Below are positions 832-19,536 of a stretch of 24,151 nucleotides of DNA, piece after piece. Within the stretch, counting starts at the first letter, position 1. Each line of letters starts with the position of its first letter. The notes beneath the pieces were generated by a model. That model searched no databases and was not told where the DNA came from. It saw nothing but the letters and a program-made list of their open reading frames with translations. This stretch comes from a virus, in IMG/VR virus record IMGVR_UViG_3300015360_003313, positions 1 to 24,151 of that record; one strand, given 5' to 3'. A program made the translations under genes and the position numbers.

Positions 832-1509
832 TCACGCGACAATCGGCTCGATCAACCCCCGGTCGTTGTTCCGCACGCTATTCACCGCCGGCGACACCCG
901 CCACGCGTCCATGGTCTCCACGGGTGGGGGCACCAGCAGCGAACGCAACGACGCCTCGCTCGAGGCCGGCGACAGCCATGTCTCTTCCGCCTCGGGCGCC
1001 ACGATCGCCGCCATGCGGTGGTGGACCCGGCCCACCATCTGGTTGGCTACGGTGGTCAGCAGGATGAAGCGCTCCTCCTCGCCACTGTCCACAGCGACGC
1101 GCTCCCACAGCCCCGCGATGCCGAAGACCCGCCGGTCGCGACGGGCGAACGCCCATGGCAGGGCTGCCCCCGTGATGGCCTTGGGGGTCCATTCATAGAA
1201 GGCGGTCGCTGGCACGAGGCAGCGCCGGGTCAGGAAGGCCTCGCGCCACGTGCGCTTGGCCCAGGCGTCCTCGCCGAGCGCGTTCACCAAGAGCGCCTTG
1301 GTGAAGTCGCGCCGCCATCCCCAGCGCATCGGGCGCATCTCCACGGTCATCGCCCCGGCTACGATCGCCGGGTGCAGCTGCATGGGGGCGCCATTCCAGG
1401 TCGGCCCGAGGGCAGCAGCGCCCGGGTGGATGATCCCCCCGCGCTTGGCGAAATCGATCTCCCAAGCCAGCTCATCGGTGGTCCGGTCACGCGCCAGGCG
1501 CCCACACAT
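832..1509 (-). CDS. SRAP domain protein (YedK/HMCES family, abasic-site DNA-protein crosslinker)
   Basis: This is a 225-residue SRAP protein. The family forms a thiazolidine crosslink between its Cys2 and abasic sites in single-stranded DNA, shielding them during replication. The start at 1509 is fixed by the N-terminal MCGR, because Cys2 must become the N-terminus; a longer reading frame upstream would bury it. Other family positions are visible: WGW at 63-65, the catalytic Asn in VNALGED (N76, where NARSE is more usual), RRCLVPATAFYEW with E106, and the active-site His in VHHRM (H163). Length fits the family. It reads toward the left edge and is divergent from the regulator at 1994, with the GGTCAC array between them. 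SRAP genes are common on phages and mobile elements. The Shine-Dalgarno is weak. Confidence 0.93.
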   Translation of the reverse strand: MCGRLARDRTTDELAWEIDFAKRGGIIHPGAAALGPTWNGAPMQLHPAIVAGAMTVEMRPMRWGWRRDFTKALLVNALGEDAWAKRTWREAFLTRRCLVPATAFYEWTPKAITGAALPWAFARRDRRVFGIAGLWERVAVDSGEEERFILLTTVANQMVGRVHHRMAAIVAPEAEETWLSPASSEASLRSLLVPPPVETMDAWRVSPAVNSVRNNDRGLIEPIVA

Positions 1510-1603
1510 GGCCGGGAGCCTGTGTTCGCCCCTCAGGCGCGCCAGGGGTCGTGTCCCCAAGTTCTCACCCCACCCTGCTCGACAGCGGCCCCCAGCCCGA
1601 ATC

Positions 1604-1719
1604 GGTCACACGGTCACATGCGGTCACATCGTGGTCACGTGACCGGTGGTCACATGGTCACACGCCCCTATAGGGGGCGTGACCTGTGACCGTGACCGCT
1701 GTGACCCCACGGTGGTCAC
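1604..1719. repeat. Array of twelve GGTCAC hexamers (iteron- or operator-like)
   Basis: GGTCAC occurs on the plus strand at 1604, 1612, 1622, 1633, 1648, 1656 and 1714, and its complement GTGACC at 1639, 1679, 1686, 1692 and 1701. Copies at 1633 and 1639 form a perfect 12-base palindrome GGTCACGTGACC. A near-palindrome centred on CTATAG (1668-1673) joins the plus-oriented left cluster to the minus-oriented right cluster, so the whole block is a large inverted structure. It is the only such array in the window and lies in the SRAP-regulator intergenic region. Spacing of neighbouring same-strand copies is irregular (6-15 bases). Possible roles are a repressor or regulator operator array or a replication origin with iterons; the sequence does not decide. 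Confidence 0.75.
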
Positions 1720-6184: not shown

Positions 6185-6421
6185 ATGTCCGCTGATCCCG
6201 CCGAGCCCGCCGACGGCGCTCCGCGCCTGACCGCGCTGCCCATCGCCACTGTCGTCGCGCTGCTGCGCCGCGCCGGTGCGCGTCATCTCGACACCGACAC
6301 CGTGCGCGCCGATCTCGCCGCCGGCGCGCCAGCCAACGCCGATGGCACCATCAACCTGATATCCTATGGCGCCTGGCTGGTGCGCGAGCTGGCCCGCACG
6401 GAGAGCGACCATGGCAGCTGA
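6185..6421 (+). CDS. Small terminase-subunit-like protein
   Basis: A 78-residue protein immediately upstream of the large terminase subunit. Residues about 21-70 (ATVVALLRRAGARHLD, then GAPANADGTINLISYGAWLVREL) form a small helical, HTH-like unit of a type found before terminase genes in related phages. The same layout is repeated at the N-terminus of the terminase itself (LARLLNST ... IGDGRSVDLLRYLAWL), suggesting that both recognise DNA or form the same oligomer. Its last codons overlap the ATG of the terminase at 6411 by 11 bases, so they are translationally coupled. It is short for a complete TerS, but position and shared domain make a packaging role likely. The start is the first ATG in the frame without shadow-frame extension. 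Confidence 0.6.
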   Translation: MSADPAEPADGAPRLTALPIATVVALLRRAGARHLDTDTVRADLAAGAPANADGTINLISYGAWLVRELARTESDHGS

Positions 6422-8717
6422 TCCCCGGCACGTGCGGCCCGCGGATCTCGCGCGGCTGCTCAATTCGACGCCAGTCGGCACGGTCATCAGCGAGCGCCAG
6501 CTGCATCGCCACCGCACCCGCGCCGGCTTCCGCATCGGCGACGGCCGCAGCGTCGATCTCCTGCGCTACCTCGCCTGGCTCTGCGATCAGGTGCATCGCC
6601 CGGCCGACCCCGTCGCGGCCGATGGCGGCTACGCCGCGCACCGTGCTGCCGCGGCCGAGCGCAGCCGGCTCGCCGCCGAGTCCGGCCGCGACATCGGCGA
6701 GCTGCCGCCGGTGGCCGACCCCGTCCGGAAGGCAGCGGCGGAGCGTGACTTCCGCGTCTTCTGCGACAGCTACTTCCCCGACCTCTTCTACCTGCCCTGG
6801 TCCCCCGATCACCGGAAGGTGATCGGCAAGATCGAAGAGGCGGTCCTGCACGGCGGCCTGTTCGCGATGGCGACTCCGCGCGGAGCCGGCAAGTCGAGTC
6901 TCACGGAATGCGCGTGCCTGTGGGCCATCATCTACGGCCACCGCGATTTCGTCTGCCTCATCGGCTCCGACGAAGCGCACGCCCTCGACATGCTGGAGTC
7001 GCTGCGCACCGAGCTCGACGGCAACGAGCGGCTGCTGGGCGACTTCCCCGAGGTCTGCTTCCCGATCCACGCCCTGCAGGGCATCGCCCACCGCGCCAAT
7101 GGCCAGCTCTACCGTGGCGAGCGCACCCACATCGGCTGGACCGCGCGCGAGATCGTCTTGCCGATCGTCGCCGGCTCACGCGGCGCGGGCGCCATCGTCC
7201 GTGTCGCCGGGATCACCGGGCGGATCCGAGGGATGAAGTTCAAGCGGCCGGACGGTCGCGCCGTGCGTCCGTCGCTGGTGGTGCTCGATGATCCGCAGAC
7301 CGACGAGTCCGCCCGTTCCCCCAGCCAGTGCGCGCACCGCGAGGCGATTCTCGCCGGCGCCATCCTGGGCCTCGCCGGACCGGGCCGAAAGATCGCCGGC
7401 GTGATGCCGTGCACGGTCATCCGTCCCGGCGACATGGCCGATCGCATCCTCGACCGCGACCTCCACCCCGAATGGAACGGCGAGCGCACCAAGCTCGTGT
7501 ACGCCTTCCCGAGCGACACCGCGCGCTGGGAGGAGTACGCGCAGTTGCGCGCCGATGGCCTGCGCGCCGGCCGCGGCTTGGCCGACGCCACGGCGTTCTA
7601 CGTCGCCAACCGCGACGCCATGGACGCCGGCGGATCGATCGCCTGGCCCGAGCGTTTCAACCACGACGAGGCTTCCGCCCTCCAGCACGCGATGAATCTC
7701 AAGCTGCAGGACGAGGCCGCGTTCTGGGCGGAGTACCAGAACGAACCGCTGCCCGAGGTCACCCTCGCTGCCGACGAACTCACCGCCGAGCGCATCGCCA
7801 GCAAGCTCAACGGCCTGGAGCGCGGCGCCGTGCCTACCGCGGCGACACGGCTCACCGCCTTCATCGACGTGCAGCAGAAGGCGCTGTTCCACGTGGTGGT
7901 CGCGTGGGCCGACGACTTCACCGGCTACGTGCTCGACTACGGCACCTTCCCCGACCAGCAGCGGCCCTACTTCACCCTGCGCGATCTGCGCCGCACGCTG
8001 AATGACACCTTCCCGTCGACGGGCCTGGAAGGCGCGCTCTACGCCGGCCTCGAACGGCTCTCCGACGACCTCCTGCGGCGGCGCTGGACGCGCGACGACG
8101 GCGCCGAACTCGCCATCGAGCGGCTGCTCATCGACGCCAACTGGGGCCAGTCGACGGATGTCGTCTACCAAGTCTGCCGGCAATCGGTGCACGCCGCGGT
8201 GCTCATGCCCAGCCATGGCCGCTTCGTCGGCGCCGCCTCACTGCCCTTCGCCGACCACCGCCGCAAACCCGGCGAGCGCGTCGGGCCCGACTGGCGCATC
8301 CCGGCCGTGACCGGCGCCCGCGCGGTGCGCCACCTGCTCTACGACGCCAACGCCTGGAAGTCGTTCGTCTACGCGCGCTTGGCCGTGGCGATGGGCGACC
8401 CCGGTTGCCTGTCGCTGCACGGACGGGACGCCGTGCGTCATCGCCTGTTCGCCGAGCACCTGGTCGCCGAGTACCGGGTGCGCACGTCCGGCCGCGGCCG
8501 GGAGGTCGACGAGTGGCGGTTGCGACCGGAGGCCTTCGACAACCATTGGTTTGATTGCGTCGTCGGCTGCGCGGTGGCGGCGTCGATGCAGGGCGTGGTG
8601 CTGGCGGGGATGGGCGTGGTTGCGACGCGCAAAGCCGGCAGGGTCACGCTCTCGGACCTGCGGCGAGCCCGCCTGGTGCGCCCGCCAGCGAACGCGGGGG
8701 CGACGTCGCATCGTTGA
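6411..8717 (+). CDS. terL: Phage terminase large subunit (ATPase and nuclease)
   Basis: The 768-residue protein packages phage DNA into the prohead. An N-terminal HTH-like module (about 13-61) precedes the motor. Walker A is ATPRGAGKSS at about 154-163 (K161), Walker B is VVLDDPQ with D293-D294, and the adenine/coupling region follows in PSQCAHREAILAG. The C-terminal nuclease domain starts near LTAFIDVQQ (D486) and has a second acidic strand LLIDANWG (D575), in line with RNase-H-like terminase nucleases. It is longer than most TerL proteins, which fits the extra N-terminal module. It overlaps the small upstream gene. Unusually, the next gene is an inverted HTH-repeat gene and not the portal. 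Confidence 0.95.
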   Translation: MAADPRHVRPADLARLLNSTPVGTVISERQLHRHRTRAGFRIGDGRSVDLLRYLAWLCDQVHRPADPVAADGGYAAHRAAAAERSRLAAESGRDIGELPPVADPVRKAAAERDFRVFCDSYFPDLFYLPWSPDHRKVIGKIEEAVLHGGLFAMATPRGAGKSSLTECACLWAIIYGHRDFVCLIGSDEAHALDMLESLRTELDGNERLLGDFPEVCFPIHALQGIAHRANGQLYRGERTHIGWTAREIVLPIVAGSRGAGAIVRVAGITGRIRGMKFKRPDGRAVRPSLVVLDDPQTDESARSPSQCAHREAILAGAILGLAGPGRKIAGVMPCTVIRPGDMADRILDRDLHPEWNGERTKLVYAFPSDTARWEEYAQLRADGLRAGRGLADATAFYVANRDAMDAGGSIAWPERFNHDEASALQHAMNLKLQDEAAFWAEYQNEPLPEVTLAADELTAERIASKLNGLERGAVPTAATRLTAFIDVQQKALFHVVVAWADDFTGYVLDYGTFPDQQRPYFTLRDLRRTLNDTFPSTGLEGALYAGLERLSDDLLRRRWTRDDGAELAIERLLIDANWGQSTDVVYQVCRQSVHAAVLMPSHGRFVGAASLPFADHRRKPGERVGPDWRIPAVTGARAVRHLLYDANAWKSFVYARLAVAMGDPGCLSLHGRDAVRHRLFAEHLVAEYRVRTSGRGREVDEWRLRPEAFDNHWFDCVVGCAVAASMQGVVLAGMGVVATRKAGRVTLSDLRRARLVRPPANAGATSHR

Positions 8718-8778
8718 TCTGCAAGCCCGATCCGAAGCAGACCGCTCGGCAATGCCTCGTCGGCGATAACGGCCGCGA

Positions 8779-9948
8779 TCATTCCGCGAATGCGGGGATG
8801 CCGCGCGCCCGGCGATGGCGGCCGACGAGCTTGGGATGAAGTCCCAGCCGCGCGCCGATGACGCTATCGGAGGCCGTGCCCAGCAGCGCGATCATCGCCG
8901 ACGTCCAGACCGTGGTTCCAGAGGCAGCGATGCCCAGCGCGCCGCGTTTACGGCTGACGGCCGAGCGGCTCATGCCGAGCTGCCGTGCGATCACGCCATC
9001 GTCGGCAGTTCCGAGGTGGGCGAGCATCGTCTTCGTCCACCGCGTCGCCTGAGCCAGGGGCGCGATGCTCAGCGCGGTCCGTTTGCGACACACCTGGGTG
9101 GTGGCGATACCGAGGCGGCGGGCCACGGTGCGATCACTGAGCCGACCGAGCAGCCGCAGGTGCGCGGCGGTCCAGCGATGCCGCCGCGGGTTTTGGTAGG
9201 CCGCGATGCCAAGGGCGCGGCGCTTGGCCTGGAGCGTGGGACGCGCGACGCCGAAGCGGCGGTGCAGCACGATGTCCGGCACACGCCCCAAGGCGTCCAG
9301 GAGGCGACGCGGCCAACGAATCGGGGCGCAGACGATCAGCGGAGCGATGCCGAGTTGCTCCCGGCGCCTGCGGATGCTCGCCTCGCTGTGGCGCCAGCGC
9401 AGCGCCAGCACCCGGTCGGGAACCGTACCGAGGAGCGCTTCCCGCTCCGGCGCCCACACCATCTCCCGGTAACCGGTGACGGGTGGGATGCCCAGACTCT
9501 GACGCTTTCCGCGCACGATGGCGATACGTAGCCCAAGATCGCGCGCCAGCGCCGTGTCGGTCGCGCGCCCGAGTTTGGCCAGATCAGCACGAGTCCACGT
9601 CACCAGTCGCTGGGTCGGCCGCATGAACGCGGGGATACCGCGTCCGCGTCGCCGGTCGCAGACCGATGAGATGGAGATGCCGAGTTGCTCGGCGACGGCA
9701 CGGTCGGTCTCAGTGCCGAGCAGCGCGTCCATCGCTGACGTCCAGCGCACCATCGGGCGGAACGGCCGATACGGGGCGATGCCCCGCCGCTTCCGCATGA
9801 CGGCGACGCTGCTCTCGTGCACCTCGATCATCCCGGCGAGCACGCCGTCGGGCATGGTGCCGAGCAGCCGCAGGTGCTTGACGCTCCAGCGGGGCCCACG
9901 CTGACGAGGGATGGCGGTGGCGGGGGCTGCTGGCGCGGTTGAGGACAT
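8779..9948 (-). CDS. Protein of eight tandem HTH-like (Myb/homeodomain-like) repeats
   Basis: The 389-residue protein is almost entirely eight diverged copies of a 44-49 residue unit. Each unit begins with a Trp (W21, 69, 118, 165, 212, 259, 304, 348), then LLG or LG, an Asp five residues on, an A..LG[IML] turn, a basic stretch with V..KR or similar, and a closing GI or SI followed by A or P. The pattern (Trp, helix, helix-turn-helix, basic helix) resembles compact Myb-like or homeodomain-like HTH units. Only a short Ala/Pro-rich leader precedes repeat 1, and the protein ends at repeat 8. The ATG at 9948 is the nearest start before the repeats; a GTG seven codons earlier is possible. It lies inverted between terminase and portal, as an accessory (moron) gene, divergent from the promoter-like block at 10166. 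A DNA-binding role is inferred from the fold pattern. Confidence 0.8.
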   Translation of the reverse strand: MSSTAPAAPATAIPRQRGPRWSVKHLRLLGTMPDGVLAGMIEVHESSVAVMRKRRGIAPYRPFRPMVRWTSAMDALLGTETDRAVAEQLGISISSVCDRRRGRGIPAFMRPTQRLVTWTRADLAKLGRATDTALARDLGLRIAIVRGKRQSLGIPPVTGYREMVWAPEREALLGTVPDRVLALRWRHSEASIRRRREQLGIAPLIVCAPIRWPRRLLDALGRVPDIVLHRRFGVARPTLQAKRRALGIAAYQNPRRHRWTAAHLRLLGRLSDRTVARRLGIATTQVCRKRTALSIAPLAQATRWTKTMLAHLGTADDGVIARQLGMSRSAVSRKRGALGIAASGTTVWTSAMIALLGTASDSVIGARLGLHPKLVGRHRRARGIPAFAE

Positions 9949-10250
9949 GATCTCTGAAGGGCTCACCGTACGCAGGCACCTCGGGATGCCACCTGGGTGG
10001 CGACGCAACAAAGATTCCCGTACCGCCACGGTGCGCTCCTGCGCATCACCGGAGGAGCGACCGCGCGCCACGACGCCGGAACCTCCGGCAGCCCAGGTGC
10101 CAGCGGCAAACAACTGGTGAGGTCCCGGCACATGCTCCCACGTCGCCATCGCTGCGGCGCTCACCCCGGACCGGTTCTGGTCGCGGCTGCGCATAATAGG
10201 GGAGTGGATTTCATCAGCGCCATCGCTCGGCGCCCCATCGCGATCACGGG
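9949..10250. other. Divergent intergenic region between HTH-repeat gene and head operon
   Basis: These 302 bases separate the inverted HTH-repeat gene from the plus-strand head operon. They hold the promoter-like block at 10166-10207 and a short perfect hairpin, GCCGGA/TCCGGC at 10075-10089. No convincing gene is seen; the reading frames crossing it look like shadows. No clear minus-strand promoter could be picked out for the HTH-repeat gene. Confidence 0.5.
10166..10207 (+). promoter_or_regulatory. Promoter-like block, copy 2 (upstream of the head operon)
   Basis: This is the second copy of the block at 1738-1779. CATAAT at 10192-10197 is the candidate -10 and GACCGG at 10169-10174 the candidate -35, with the same 17-base spacing. 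The block ends about 45 bases before the first head gene at 10251, a good distance for a late promoter after interruption of the packaging operon by the inverted HTH-repeat gene. Confidence 0.6.
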
Positions 10251-10514
10251 ATGACGATGCCGACCGACCCCGCCACTCCTGATCCCACCCCGCCGGCCGC
10301 GCCGACGCCCGTCCCTGCGCCCGACGCCCTGGACCAGGCTATCGCCGACAACGCCGCCGGCCCCAAGCAGGCCACCGGCGACACCGGATCGGTCGAACAG
10401 CACCCGCTCCCCGACCAGATCGCCGCCGACAAGTACCTCGCGGCGAAGAAGGCCGCGCGCCGGCGCGGCAAGGGCGTCTCCCTCACCAAGCTGGTCCCGC
10501 CGGGGACGGCATGA
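10251..10514 (+). CDS. Small head-connector-region protein upstream of portal
   Basis: An 87-residue protein. The first ~35 residues are a Pro/Ala-rich tail; the rest (AIADNAAGPKQATGD, QHPLPDQIAADKYLAAKKAA, VSLTKLVPPGTA) is the kind of short conserved protein found directly before lambda-type portal genes, in the place of lambda gpW. I do not claim homology to gpW itself. An alternative ATG is at 10257. Its stop overlaps the portal start in an ATGA junction at 10511, so translation is coupled. It is the first gene after the promoter-like block. Confidence 0.6.
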   Translation: MTMPTDPATPDPTPPAAPTPVPAPDALDQAIADNAAGPKQATGDTGSVEQHPLPDQIAADKYLAAKKAARRRGKGVSLTKLVPPGTA

Positions 10515-12067
10515 GCGTGCTCGGCCGCATCATCGAGGGCCTGCGGGCCATCGGTCGCAGCAACGCCGCCGTCCCCGGTGGGCGCCGGCATCGGTTCGCT
10601 CCGGGGCGCGTCCGCGTGCGCGCCGCCTACGACGCAGCGCAGACCACCGACGAGAACCGCAAGCATTGGTCGCTGGCGGATGGCCTCTCCGCCGACGCCG
10701 CGGCATCGCCCTGGGTGCGGCGCATCCTGCGCAACCGCTCCCGCTACGAGGTCTGCAACAACGCCTACGCGCGCGGCATGGTGCTGACCATCGCCAACGA
10801 CTGCGTCGGCACCGGGCCGCGCCTCCAGGTGACCGGTATCGCCGGCGACGACGCGCGGCTGGTCGAGCGCGCCTTTGCGGACTGGGCGCGCGGTTGTGAT
10901 CTCGCCGAGAAGCTCCGCACGCTGCGCGTCGCCCAGGCCGAGGACGGCGAGGCGTTCGCGCTGCTGACCTCGAACCCCGGGCTGAACACGCGCGTGAAGC
11001 TCGACGTCCGCCCGATCGAGGCCGACCAGGTCGCGACCCCCGGCTTCCTTCCGACCGGCCCGGAGCGCAGCGCTATCGACGGCATCGTCTTCGACGTGGC
11101 GGGCAACCCGATCGAGTACCACGTCCTCAAGGACCATCCCGGCGCCCAGGGCACCACGCGGTTCCTGCTCGACTCCACCACCGTGCCGGCCGCGTCGATG
11201 CTGCACTGCTTCCGCGCCGACCGGCCGGGCCAGCGCCGCGGTGTGCCCGAGCTGACCCCGGCGCTGCCGCTCTTCGCGCAACTGCGCCGCTACACCCTGG
11301 CCGTGCTCGCCGCGGCGGAGACTGCCGCCGACTTCGCTGGGGTGCTTTACACCGACGCGCCGGCCAACGGCGAGGCCGACGCCGTCGAGCCGATGGACAC
11401 CGTCGATCTCGCCGCTCGCGCGATGCTGACTCTGCCCAGCGGCTGGAAGATGGGCCAGGTCCACGCCGAGCAGCCCGCCACCACCTACGCCGAGTTCAAA
11501 CGCGAGGTCCTCAACGAGATCGCCCGCTGCCTGAACCTCCCCTACAACATCGCGGCGGGTAACTCGAGCGGCTACAACTACGCCTCCGGCCGGCTCGACC
11601 ATCAGGTCTACCACAAGGCCATCCGCGTCGACCAGGCGCGCTGCGCCGCCCGGCTGCTCGACCCGCTCTTCGCGGCCTGGGTGCGCGAGGCGATCCTGAT
11701 CGAAGGGTTCCTCCCCCAGCGGCTGCGCACGGCGGCGACGGACTGGTCGCACCAGTGGTTCTGGGATGGCCAGGAGCACGTCGACCCGCTGAAGGAGGCC
11801 GCCGCCCAGGCCCAGCGCCTGGCCAGCAACACCACCACCCTCGCTGACGAGTACGCGCGAAAAGGTCAGGACTGGGATGAGCAGCTGCGGCAGCGGGCGC
11901 GCGAACGCGCCTTGATGCGCGACCTCGGATTGGAGGCCACCGAACCGACGTCGCCCGGCCGGGCGCAGCCCAGCACGCCTGGACGCGGCGATCCACCGCC
12001 GCGCGATGCACCCGATGGTCCCGCCACCGATGGTTCCGAGGAGGACGGCGATGCCGTGCCCGTCTGA
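10511..12067 (+). CDS. Portal protein, lambda family
   Basis: The 518-residue protein matches the lambda gpB-type portal layout: an N-terminal AAYDAAQTTDENRKHW segment, then NNAYARGMVLTIANDCVGTGPRLQ, AQAEDGEAFALL, an IDGIVFDVAGNPIEYHVL stretch, MLHCFRADRPGQRRGVPEL, and the C-terminal NLPYNIAAGNSSGYNYASGR leading to a long helical segment. Portals form the dodecameric ring at the head vertex through which the terminase drives DNA. Length fits the family. The C-terminus is disordered (Pro/Asp-rich). It starts with the ATGA overlap at 10511 and overlaps the next gene by 17 bases. Confidence 0.93.
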   Translation: MSVLGRIIEGLRAIGRSNAAVPGGRRHRFAPGRVRVRAAYDAAQTTDENRKHWSLADGLSADAAASPWVRRILRNRSRYEVCNNAYARGMVLTIANDCVGTGPRLQVTGIAGDDARLVERAFADWARGCDLAEKLRTLRVAQAEDGEAFALLTSNPGLNTRVKLDVRPIEADQVATPGFLPTGPERSAIDGIVFDVAGNPIEYHVLKDHPGAQGTTRFLLDSTTVPAASMLHCFRADRPGQRRGVPELTPALPLFAQLRRYTLAVLAAAETAADFAGVLYTDAPANGEADAVEPMDTVDLAARAMLTLPSGWKMGQVHAEQPATTYAEFKREVLNEIARCLNLPYNIAAGNSSGYNYASGRLDHQVYHKAIRVDQARCAARLLDPLFAAWVREAILIEGFLPQRLRTAATDWSHQWFWDGQEHVDPLKEAAAQAQRLASNTTTLADEYARKGQDWDEQLRQRARERALMRDLGLEATEPTSPGRAQPSTPGRGDPPPRDAPDGPATDGSEEDGDAVPV

Positions 12068-17611: not shown

Positions 17612-19536
17612 TGCCAGGCGCCGGCGGCATCCGGGCGGGCCAGGCGTTCGTCGAGCTGTTCGCCGACGATCGCCGGCTCGTGCGCGGCCTGCGCCAGGCG
17701 CAGCGGAAGCTCGCCGCCTTCGGCGGGTTCGTCCGCGGCCTGGGCGCGGGCTTCGCCGCGCTGGGGGCGGGGATCGTCGCCCCGCTGCTGGCAGCGGCGC
17801 GGTCCTTCGCCCAGACCGGGGACGATCTCGACGAGTTGGCCGGGCGTACCGGCGTCTCGGTCGAGGCGTTGTCGGAACTGGGCTTTGCCGCCCGGCTCTC
17901 GGGCGCCGGACTCGCGGACGTCGAGAAGGGCGTGCGCACGCTCCAGCGCACCATCGTCGCGGCGGCGGCTGGCAGCGATTCGGCCGCCGCCGCCCTCGCC
18001 CGGTTGGGTCTGTCCGCCGCAGACCTCCAGCACCTGAGCCCAGAGCAGCAGTTCGACGCGGTGGCCCAGGCGCTGCGCCGCATCGAGAACCCCACCAGCC
18101 GCGCCGCGGCGGCGATGTCCGTGCTCGGCCGTTCGGGCACGCAGCTGCTGCCGATGATCGACGATCTCGACCAGCTCCGCGCGCAGGCACGCGCGCTCGG
18201 GGTCACGCTCTCGACCCGGCAGGCCAAGGACGCGGCCGGCCTGGCCGACGCCTTCGACCGCGTCGCCGCCAGCCTGGGCGGAGTCGTCAACGCCGTCGGC
18301 GGGGCGTTGGCGCCGGTGCTCACCGATCTCGCGAACCGCGTGACCAGCGTCCTGGTCGGCGTGCACGACTGGGTCGCGCGCAACCAGGGTCTGGTGGTGA
18401 CCATCCTCAAGGTCGGCGCCGGGGCAGTGCTGATCGGCGGGTCGCTGGTCGCGCTCGGCCTGGCGGCCACCGTCCTCGCTACGGCCCTCGGCGGCTTGGC
18501 GACCATCGCCAGCGCCGTCGGCAGCGTGCTCGGCGTCGTCGGCGCCGTGCTCGGCGCGCTGCTGACGCCCATCGGCGCCATCATCGGCGGAGTGGTGGCG
18601 CTCGGCGCCGTGGTGCTGACGCAGACCCAGGCCGGCGGGCAGGCGCTGGGCTGGCTGGGGGAGCGCTTCGCCGGGCTGCGCGACGATGCCTCCGCCGCCT
18701 GGACCGGCATCGCCGACGCGCTCCTGGCCGGCGATCTCACCGCTGCGACGCAGGTGGTGTGGGCGGCGCTGAAGCTGGAATGGCAGCGCGGGACGGCGTT
18801 CCTCGCCGACCTCTGGGACAGCACGGTGGCCGGCTTCGCCACGGTCTTCGCCGAGGCCTGGTTCGGTATCCTGGGGACCTTCCAGGGCGTGGTGAACGCC
18901 ATCGGCGACGCGTGGGACCTCGTCACCGGCCTCATCGTCAAGGCCTGGAACACCGCCGTCGCTGCGATGGCGGGGAAGTTCGCGGGCCTGCTCGAGATGC
19001 TCGGCCTCGCCGACGCCGGCTTGGGCGCGGCGATCGATCAGGACACCCAGCGACGCAATCAGGAGATCGACGCCGGCGCCGCACGCCGCCAGCAGGAGCG
19101 GACCCAGGCCTCAGCCGACATCGCCACCGACCGTGAGGCCGTGCTCGCCGGTATCGGCGATGATCTCGCGGCGAAGCAAGCCGACCGCGAGGCTGGCGTC
19201 GGCCAGGCGCGCGCCGAGCTCGACGCCGCGGTCGCAGCGGCGGGCGCGTCGCGTGCGGCAACCAACCGCCGCGCCGCCGACGCCGGCGTGGCACCGGACG
19301 CGCCGACCCTTCCCGACTTCGATGCTCTGCAGGCCAGCCTCGACCGCGTGCCCGAGACGCTCACCGCCGAGGCGGCCAAGCTCGACGTGTCCGGCACCTT
19401 CGGCGCCACCGCGGTCGGTCAGCTCGGCGTCGGCGACACGGCCGGGGAGCGCACCGCCAAGGCGGCGGAGGAGACGGCCAAGAACACCCTCCGCCTGCTG
19501 CGCGCCGTCGAGGACGGCGGCGCGGAGTTCGGCTGA
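17611..19536 (+). CDS. Tail tape measure protein
   Basis: The 641-residue protein sets tail length and is ejected with DNA. Evidence includes a TP901-type N-terminus (AFVELFADDRRLVRGLRQAQRKLAAFGGFVRGLGAGFAAL shape), a DDLDELAGRTGVSVEALSELGFAA segment at about 71-94, a long hydrophobic stretch of several possible membrane segments at about 263-336, and a Gln/Arg/Ala-rich coiled coil at about 476-550. It is by far the largest tail protein before the fibre and follows the chaperone genes. At 641 residues it is shorter than lambda gpH (853), so a tail shorter than lambda's is expected. Junctions with both neighbours overlap. Confidence 0.88.
   Translation: MPGAGGIRAGQAFVELFADDRRLVRGLRQAQRKLAAFGGFVRGLGAGFAALGAGIVAPLLAAARSFAQTGDDLDELAGRTGVSVEALSELGFAARLSGAGLADVEKGVRTLQRTIVAAAAGSDSAAAALARLGLSAADLQHLSPEQQFDAVAQALRRIENPTSRAAAAMSVLGRSGTQLLPMIDDLDQLRAQARALGVTLSTRQAKDAAGLADAFDRVAASLGGVVNAVGGALAPVLTDLANRVTSVLVGVHDWVARNQGLVVTILKVGAGAVLIGGSLVALGLAATVLATALGGLATIASAVGSVLGVVGAVLGALLTPIGAIIGGVVALGAVVLTQTQAGGQALGWLGERFAGLRDDASAAWTGIADALLAGDLTAATQVVWAALKLEWQRGTAFLADLWDSTVAGFATVFAEAWFGILGTFQGVVNAIGDAWDLVTGLIVKAWNTAVAAMAGKFAGLLEMLGLADAGLGAAIDQDTQRRNQEIDAGAARRQQERTQASADIATDREAVLAGIGDDLAAKQADREAGVGQARAELDAAVAAAGASRAATNRRAADAGVAPDAPTLPDFDALQASLDRVPETLTAEAAKLDVSGTFGATAVGQLGVGDTAGERTAKAAEETAKNTLRLLRAVEDGGAEFG

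What the first reader, a model, noticed from the sequence alone, without database searches (positions are those of the whole stretch)
8779..9948. A protein built of eight tandem HTH-like repeats, inserted backwards between terminase and portal
The sequence shows eight repeats of 44-49 residues, each starting with Trp and ending in GI or SI, covering nearly the whole protein. Single units of this kind look like compact Myb/homeodomain-like DNA-binding domains. An unbroken eight-fold array would be a modular DNA reader binding a long or repeated site, different from ordinary phage repressors. It is transcribed against the operon and has no obvious enzymatic domain. The GGTCAC array in the same window is a possible, purely speculative, target.
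Basis: partly seen in the sequence, partly recalled or inferred. Interest (0 to 1): 0.75.

Follow-up and report, generated by a model that had tools for sequence, protein, structure and literature searches.

The report
Eight-unit DNA-binding protein in phage
A virus of Planctomycetota bacteria carries, in a slot where its relatives carry defence and toxin genes, a protein made almost only of eight different copies of a small DNA-gripping module, which looks like a custom reader of a long DNA site whose target is still unknown.

Summary
The 389-residue minus-strand protein at 8779-9948 is eight imperfect repeats of 42-49 residues, each starting with Trp; every unit is recognised by a profile of the other seven (35-56 bits, best shuffle 11). 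AlphaFold gives 24 helices, three per unit; a single-unit model (pLDDT 90.5) best resembles the GcrA DNA-binding domain, then Myb and homeodomains. The unit is not a Pfam family of its own. Its closest relatives are solo arrays of 6-9 units in Planctomycetota (the phage's host phylum); shorter arrays occur on Pseudomonas plasmids and in phages, where the unit is also fused to GIY-YIG nucleases and to an SF2 helicase. Orthologous arrays keep each unit in its place, and the exposed face of helix 3 is the most unit-specific part: the signature of a modular sequence reader. None of the related phages fetched carries it; their terminase-portal gap instead often holds AbiEii, HipA, TacA, McrB-like or PNP-STAND-like genes. 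So it is probably host-derived cargo at a variable slot, most likely a sequence-specific transcription regulator. The GGTCAC cluster is probably not its target: relatives without the array carry clusters of other motifs there. Target and function are unproven.

The parts
8779..9948 (-). HTH-array protein, 389 aa + stop, pI 12.0
9745..9888 (-). repeat unit 1 with linker (residues 21-68)
9598..9744 (-). repeat unit 2 with linker (residues 69-117)
9457..9597 (-). repeat unit 3 with linker (residues 118-164)
9316..9456 (-). repeat unit 4 with linker (residues 165-211)
9175..9315 (-). repeat unit 5 with linker (residues 212-258)
9040..9174 (-). repeat unit 6 with linker (residues 259-303)
8908..9039 (-). 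repeat unit 7 with linker (residues 304-347); single-unit model pLDDT 90.5
8782..8907 (-). repeat unit 8 (residues 348-389)
8718..10250 (.). cargo slot between terminase and the small pre-portal ORF; terminase-portal distance 272-850 bp in most relatives, up to 5.8 kb with defence/TA genes in others
6366..8717 (+). large terminase (GpA-type), left flank
10251..10514 (+). small ORF before portal, conserved in relatives; right flank
10511..12067 (+). portal protein, lambda family

Best explanation
A stand-alone, sequence-specific DNA-binding protein made of eight tri-helical (GcrA/Myb-like) HTH units joined by linkers of roughly 10-17 residues, with no enzymatic domain found. Each unit is predicted to place helix 3 in the major groove; because the eight helix-3 faces differ, the array should read one long composite site (or several sites) rather than a repeated motif. 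The gene was probably acquired from a planctomycetal (host-type) array gene and sits as independently transcribed cargo in the variable terminase-portal slot. It most likely acts as a transcription regulator or roadblock, repressing a phage, host or competitor locus. Shown: repeats, homology, slot, host phylum. Predicted: fold. Inferred: DNA binding, specificity, regulation. Target unknown.
For: Eight repeats. AF2: 24 helices = 8 x 3, mean pLDDT 79; single unit pLDDT 90.5, best solved matches GcrA DBD 5yiu/5yiv Z 5.4/5.3, rmsd 1.3/1.6 A over 39 residues, then Myb, homeodomain and Mos1/Tc3 DNA-binding domains at Z about 4-4.5. Pfam generic HTH models pass their cut-offs. PHROG 323 'transcriptional regulator, D5-like' 1e-13. 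The same unit is fused to GIY-YIG nuclease and SF2 helicase in other viruses. Orthologous arrays are colinear unit by unit; exposed helix-3 columns have 6.6% identity between different units but 54% between orthologous units, against 17-26% and 47-53% for exposed columns of helices 1 and 2; no random 5-column set reaches that ratio. pI 12.0, 70 K+R against 24 D+E. Planctomycetal arrays are the closest relatives; portals 72-74% identical lie in a planctomycetal genome. Slot cargo in relatives.
Against: No DNA-binding data and no known target. pTM of the full model is only 0.26, so relative placement of units is undefined. Fold Z values (about 5) are in the range where common arrangements score. 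Units 1, 4 and 5 depart from consensus in the turn (unit 4 WRHSEAS), so not all eight need bind. High pI partly reflects GC-rich arginine codons. No sigma-70-like promoter was found for the gene. Only one phage in hand carries it, so retention by selection is not shown. Helix-3 statistics come from four orthologous array pairs, none including this protein.
Confidence: 0.6

Rival explanations
1. D5-like phage regulator: coats or switches the phage's own genome (late transcription, replication, host shut-off), as annotated for T5 D5.
For: Best PHROG is phrog_323 D5-like; T5 D5 is annotated as a DNA-binding protein needed for replication and late transcription; D5 alone is toxic and its HTH is predicted to bind msDNA (PMC13405049).
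Against: T5 D5 itself is not detected by the repeat profile and hhalign gives 7% probability. D5 sits among replication genes; this gene is cargo absent from all related phages fetched, so it cannot be essential to the phage type.
Confidence: 0.15
2. Defence or counter-defence cargo: the array recognises invading or host DNA (for instance a rival phage or plasmid site) and blocks its expression or replication.
For: In relatives the same slot holds AbiEii, HipA, TacA, McrB-like, PNP-STAND-like and other genes; arrays are also common on Pseudomonas plasmids.
Against: No PADLOC match, no effector domain, no partner gene in the slot; other slot cargo is not defence (a MerR-type regulator in L004).
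Confidence: 0.15
3. Remnant or relative of a homing/targeting module: the DNA-reading part of a nuclease (GIY-YIG type) whose catalytic domain is lost or encoded elsewhere.
For: GIY-YIG + 4-5 units in Vibrio phages; SF2 helicase + 4 units.
Against: Complete 20-residue N-terminal leader before unit 1; closest relatives are solo arrays of the same length in Planctomycetota; all eight units are intact, no decay.
Confidence: 0.05
4. Non-specific DNA compaction or nucleoid protein; many weak HTH units give avidity rather than a code.
For: pI 12, long flexible array.
Against: Colinear conservation of unit order and the helix-3 pattern in orthologous arrays argue for unit-specific contacts.
Confidence: 0.1
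5. The array reads the GGTCAC cluster at 1604-1719.
For: 12 sites in 116 bp; in the loci fetched, cluster and eight-unit array are both seen only in this phage.
Against: Relatives without the array have GTGGCA x13, GGAACC x10, GGCCAC x10, GTCAAC x8 or TGGGAA x8 in the same position, so a common phage protein with changing specificity is the likelier reader. Eight different helix-3 faces do not suit a homotypic 6-bp site with irregular spacing.
Confidence: 0.04

Closest known systems
Phage T5 D5 / PHROG 323 'transcriptional regulator, D5-like'
   Same: Phage proteins with HTH units and no known enzymatic domain; this protein matches the PHROG 323 profile at 1e-13 and a planctomycetal array at 7.5e-32
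   Different: T5 D5 has 255 aa, sits in the replication region, and is not detectably related by direct comparison; this one has eight clear units and is cargo
Solo HTH arrays of Planctomycetota (e.g. L278:3740-4957, L279:7671-9434) and of Pseudomonas plasmids (pQBR103, pPma4326F)
   Same: Same repeat family; 6-9 units in Planctomycetota, 3-6 on plasmids
   Different: Chromosomal or plasmid-borne rather than in a phage structural operon; the plasmid ones are annotated only as hypothetical protein
GIY-YIG homing-type nucleases of Vibrio phages (L002)
   Same: Same repeat family, 4-5 units
   Different: Carry an N-terminal GIY-YIG domain
GcrA DNA-binding domain (5yiu/5yiv)
   Same: Best solved fold for one unit: Z 5.4, rmsd 1.3 A, 39 residues, 36% identity
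   Different: The solved GcrA domain is a single unit; Pfam and PDB profile searches with the unit did not return GcrA
TALE-like proteins (TALE, BurrH, MOrTL; e.g. PMC5472282)
   Same: Works-like analogy only: tandem units with variable contact residues
   Different: Different fold and repeat length (general knowledge); no relation tested

Membership tests
Tri-helical HTH (Myb/homeodomain-like) repeat protein | Each unit folds as three helices with a C-terminal recognition helix | tested here: met
   Predicted only: 8 x 3 helices; single unit pLDDT 90.5; GcrA, Myb and homeodomain matches
Tri-helical HTH (Myb/homeodomain-like) repeat protein | Binds double-stranded DNA | not testable with these tools
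   needs EMSA/SELEX
PHROG 323, D5-like regulators | Match to the family profile | tested here: met
   1e-13, 52.6 bits, partial coverage (65-191 of 319 in best stretch); T5 D5 itself scores 242.8 bits
PHROG 323, D5-like regulators | Detectable direct homology to T5 D5 | tested here: not met
   repeat profile finds nothing in D5, blastp E 0.18, hhalign probability 7%
PHROG 323, D5-like regulators | Located with replication genes | tested here: not met
   cargo slot in the head operon, absent in related phages
PHROG 323, D5-like regulators | Required for phage replication and late transcription | not testable with these tools
   needs a deletion mutant of the phage
GcrA family | GcrA sequence model | tested here: not met
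   no GcrA family among Pfam matches
GcrA family | DNA-binding-domain fold | tested here: inconclusive
   best match, Z 5.4 over 39 residues, but a Z this low can be a common arrangement
GIY-YIG homing endonuclease | GIY-YIG catalytic domain | tested here: not met
   no match in Pfam/PHROG/NCBIfam; positive control L002 matches
Known anti-phage defence protein | PADLOC model match | tested here: not met
   slot cargo of relatives does match (AbiEii), a positive control

The most novel reading that the evidence does not exclude
A natural, unit-by-unit DNA code built on the GcrA/Myb-like fold: each 45-residue unit reads a few bases through five helix-3 positions, arrays of 3-9 units read long unique sites, and (GcrA being the nearest fold and the phage encoding an N6/N4 methyltransferase) some units may sense DNA methylation. 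Phages and plasmids would swap such readers as cargo.
Probability: 0.2. Interest if true: 0.85.

Novelty: new variant of a known kind. Interest (0 to 1): 0.55.

Why it matters
The repeat defines an HTH-array family that has no Pfam model of its own and that recurs alone or fused to nuclease/helicase in phages, plasmids and Planctomycetota. If the unit-specific helix-3 faces encode bases, the colinear orthologous arrays offer a directly testable natural modular DNA code on a very small unit. The terminase-portal slot is also a cargo hotspot worth mining for defence genes in planctomycetal phages.

Tried and rejected
Direct protein query in viral contigs found no relative. Profile query A3 was not conserved enough for pattern scans, so degenerate DNA patterns were used; they sample, not exhaust, the family. 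Alignment of overlapping three-unit rows collapsed onto identical units and was discarded. Alphaproteobacteria as host: portals only about 31% identical, rejected. PDB sequence search: P0001 none at E <= 10; unit profile only generic HTH hits. Foldseek of the full or single-unit model against the PDB gave no match at E <= 0.001; GcrA, Myb and homeodomain Z values are close enough that the exact relative is open. GGTCAC as target: rejected as unlikely. Unit-to-unit register between this protein and planctomycetal arrays is unclear apart from unit 1 in some, so it is a relative, not a clear orthologue. Literature: no paper found on this repeat; PMC12931631 was an irrelevant hit.

Full report
OBSERVATION. 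The window is a 24,151-base IMG/VR virus record. The frame 8779-9948 on the minus strand encodes 389 residues, made of a 20-residue leader and eight repeats of 42-49 residues. Each unit is recognised by a profile built from the other seven with 35-56 bits, against at most 11.3 bits in 500 shuffles. Invariant positions include W1, L9, G10, D14, R32 and I37. The gene runs against the terminase and portal genes that flank it.

FOLD. AlphaFold2 with planctomycetal relatives gives 24 helices, three per unit, mean pLDDT 79.2, pTM 0.26, i.e. beads on a string. A single-unit model from 33 aligned units reaches pLDDT 90.5. Its best solved neighbours are the Caulobacter GcrA DNA-binding domain (Z 5.4, rmsd 1.3 A, 39 residues, 36% identity; 5yiv is a complex with methylated DNA), then Myb repeats, homeodomains and mariner/Tc3 transposase DNA-binding domains at Z about 4-4.5 (full-length model). 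These Z values are modest, as expected for 40 residues. Generic HTH models of Pfam pass their cut-offs, but no Pfam family covers the 39-residue unit as such.

RELATIVES. The best PHROG is 323, 'transcriptional regulator, D5-like' (1e-13); a planctomycetal array scores 7.5e-32 and T5 D5 1.2e-71 against it. T5 D5 is annotated as a DNA-binding protein required for replication and late transcription, and a 2026 preprint reports it, through its HTH, as the trigger of retron-Kva2 (PMC13405049). Direct comparison with T5 D5 is negative, so this is not a D5 orthologue. The same repeat family occurs as 3-6-unit proteins on Pseudomonas plasmids (86 plasmid records match in all, 76 of them Pseudomonas), as GIY-YIG + 4-5 units in Vibrio phages, as an SF2 helicase + 4 units in a 102-kb viral contig, and as solo arrays of 6-9 units in Planctomycetota. 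Survey at E <= 1e-8: 9/246 Planctomycetota, 8/149 of a Pseudomonas sample, 2/369 of a Gammaproteobacteria-class sample, 1/195 in the phylum of a Verrucomicrobia genome, 0/181 Alphaproteobacteria. The samples include the genomes that were used as centres. By phmmer the ten highest-scoring relatives of the window protein are planctomycetal.

A MODULAR READER? Orthologous arrays from different genomes keep unit order: in an eight-unit pair the matching units are 45-84% identical, against typically 20-50% off the diagonal; a seven-unit and a four-unit pair behave alike. Over four such pairs (22 orthologous unit pairs) the exposed face of helix 3 (columns 25, 26, 29, 30, 33) is 54% identical between orthologous units but only 6.6% between different units; exposed columns of helix 1 are 47% and 26%, of helix 2 53% and 17%. 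No random set of five variable columns reached the helix-3 ratio in 5000 draws. So units have diverged from one another chiefly on the face that contacts DNA in this fold, and then stayed put. This is the expected footprint of unit-specific DNA contacts. It is inference from relatives; the window protein itself has no orthologue in hand.

HOST AND SLOT. Portals 72-74% identical to the window's lie in a planctomycetal genome, and 19 of 246 Planctomycetota genomes hold related ones, while Alphaproteobacteria have only about 31%. Of 103 distinct terminase-portal intervals compared (the window's own among them), 67 are at most 700 bp, 25 exceed 900 bp and 16 exceed 1500 bp. Long ones hold AbiEii (L015, L131, L146), HipA (L147), TacA (L110), an IrrE-type peptidase beside an XRE-like HTH (L119), a PNP-STAND-like protein (L127), a McrB-like AAA protein (L077), or a MerR regulator (L004). 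None of the loci fetched as relatives by terminase or portal carries the HTH array. The gene is therefore lineage-specific cargo.

GGTCAC. The cluster (12 sites in 1604-1719) is unlikely to be the target: at least six relatives without the array have a homotypic cluster of a different 6-mer upstream of the same methyltransferase gene. A common phage protein with changing specificity, or an origin, is the likelier explanation.

VERDICT. Observation confirmed; fold interpretation well supported by prediction; modular, sequence-specific DNA reading is the best explanation but untested; target unknown. New variant of a known kind (tandem-HTH/D5-like phage proteins).

Noticed in passing
window 1604-1719; L284:2485-2626, L007:1253-1403, L038:1023-1165, L109:1658-1773, L118:1534-1649, L076:2077-2216: Homotypic clusters of 8-13 copies of a 6-mer upstream of the ParB-N/methyltransferase gene, with a different 6-mer in nearly each phage (GGTCAC, GTGGCA, GGAACC, GGCCAC, GTCAAC, TGGGAA): conserved position, changing motif; perhaps repressor operators with diversifying specificity or origin iterons.
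   Followed up: partly
window 8718-10250 and the equivalent interval in L004, L015, L077, L110, L119, L127, L131, L146, L147: Terminase-portal junction of this planctomycetal phage group is a cargo hotspot with TA and defence-type genes.
   Followed up: partly
L296:1878-3605 (+): SF2 helicase (ResIII/DEAD) fused to four of the same HTH units in a 102-kb viral contig.
   Followed up: no
L278:2543-4957; L276:3626-5011 and 17836-19044: Several paralogous 7-8-unit arrays within single planctomycetal genomes, two of them adjacent in L278.
   Followed up: no
window 832-1560 (-): SRAP (SOS response-associated peptidase) gene in the phage record; a second SRAP-like ORF (starts MCGRF) lies in the slot cargo of L077, seen by eye only.
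   Followed up: no
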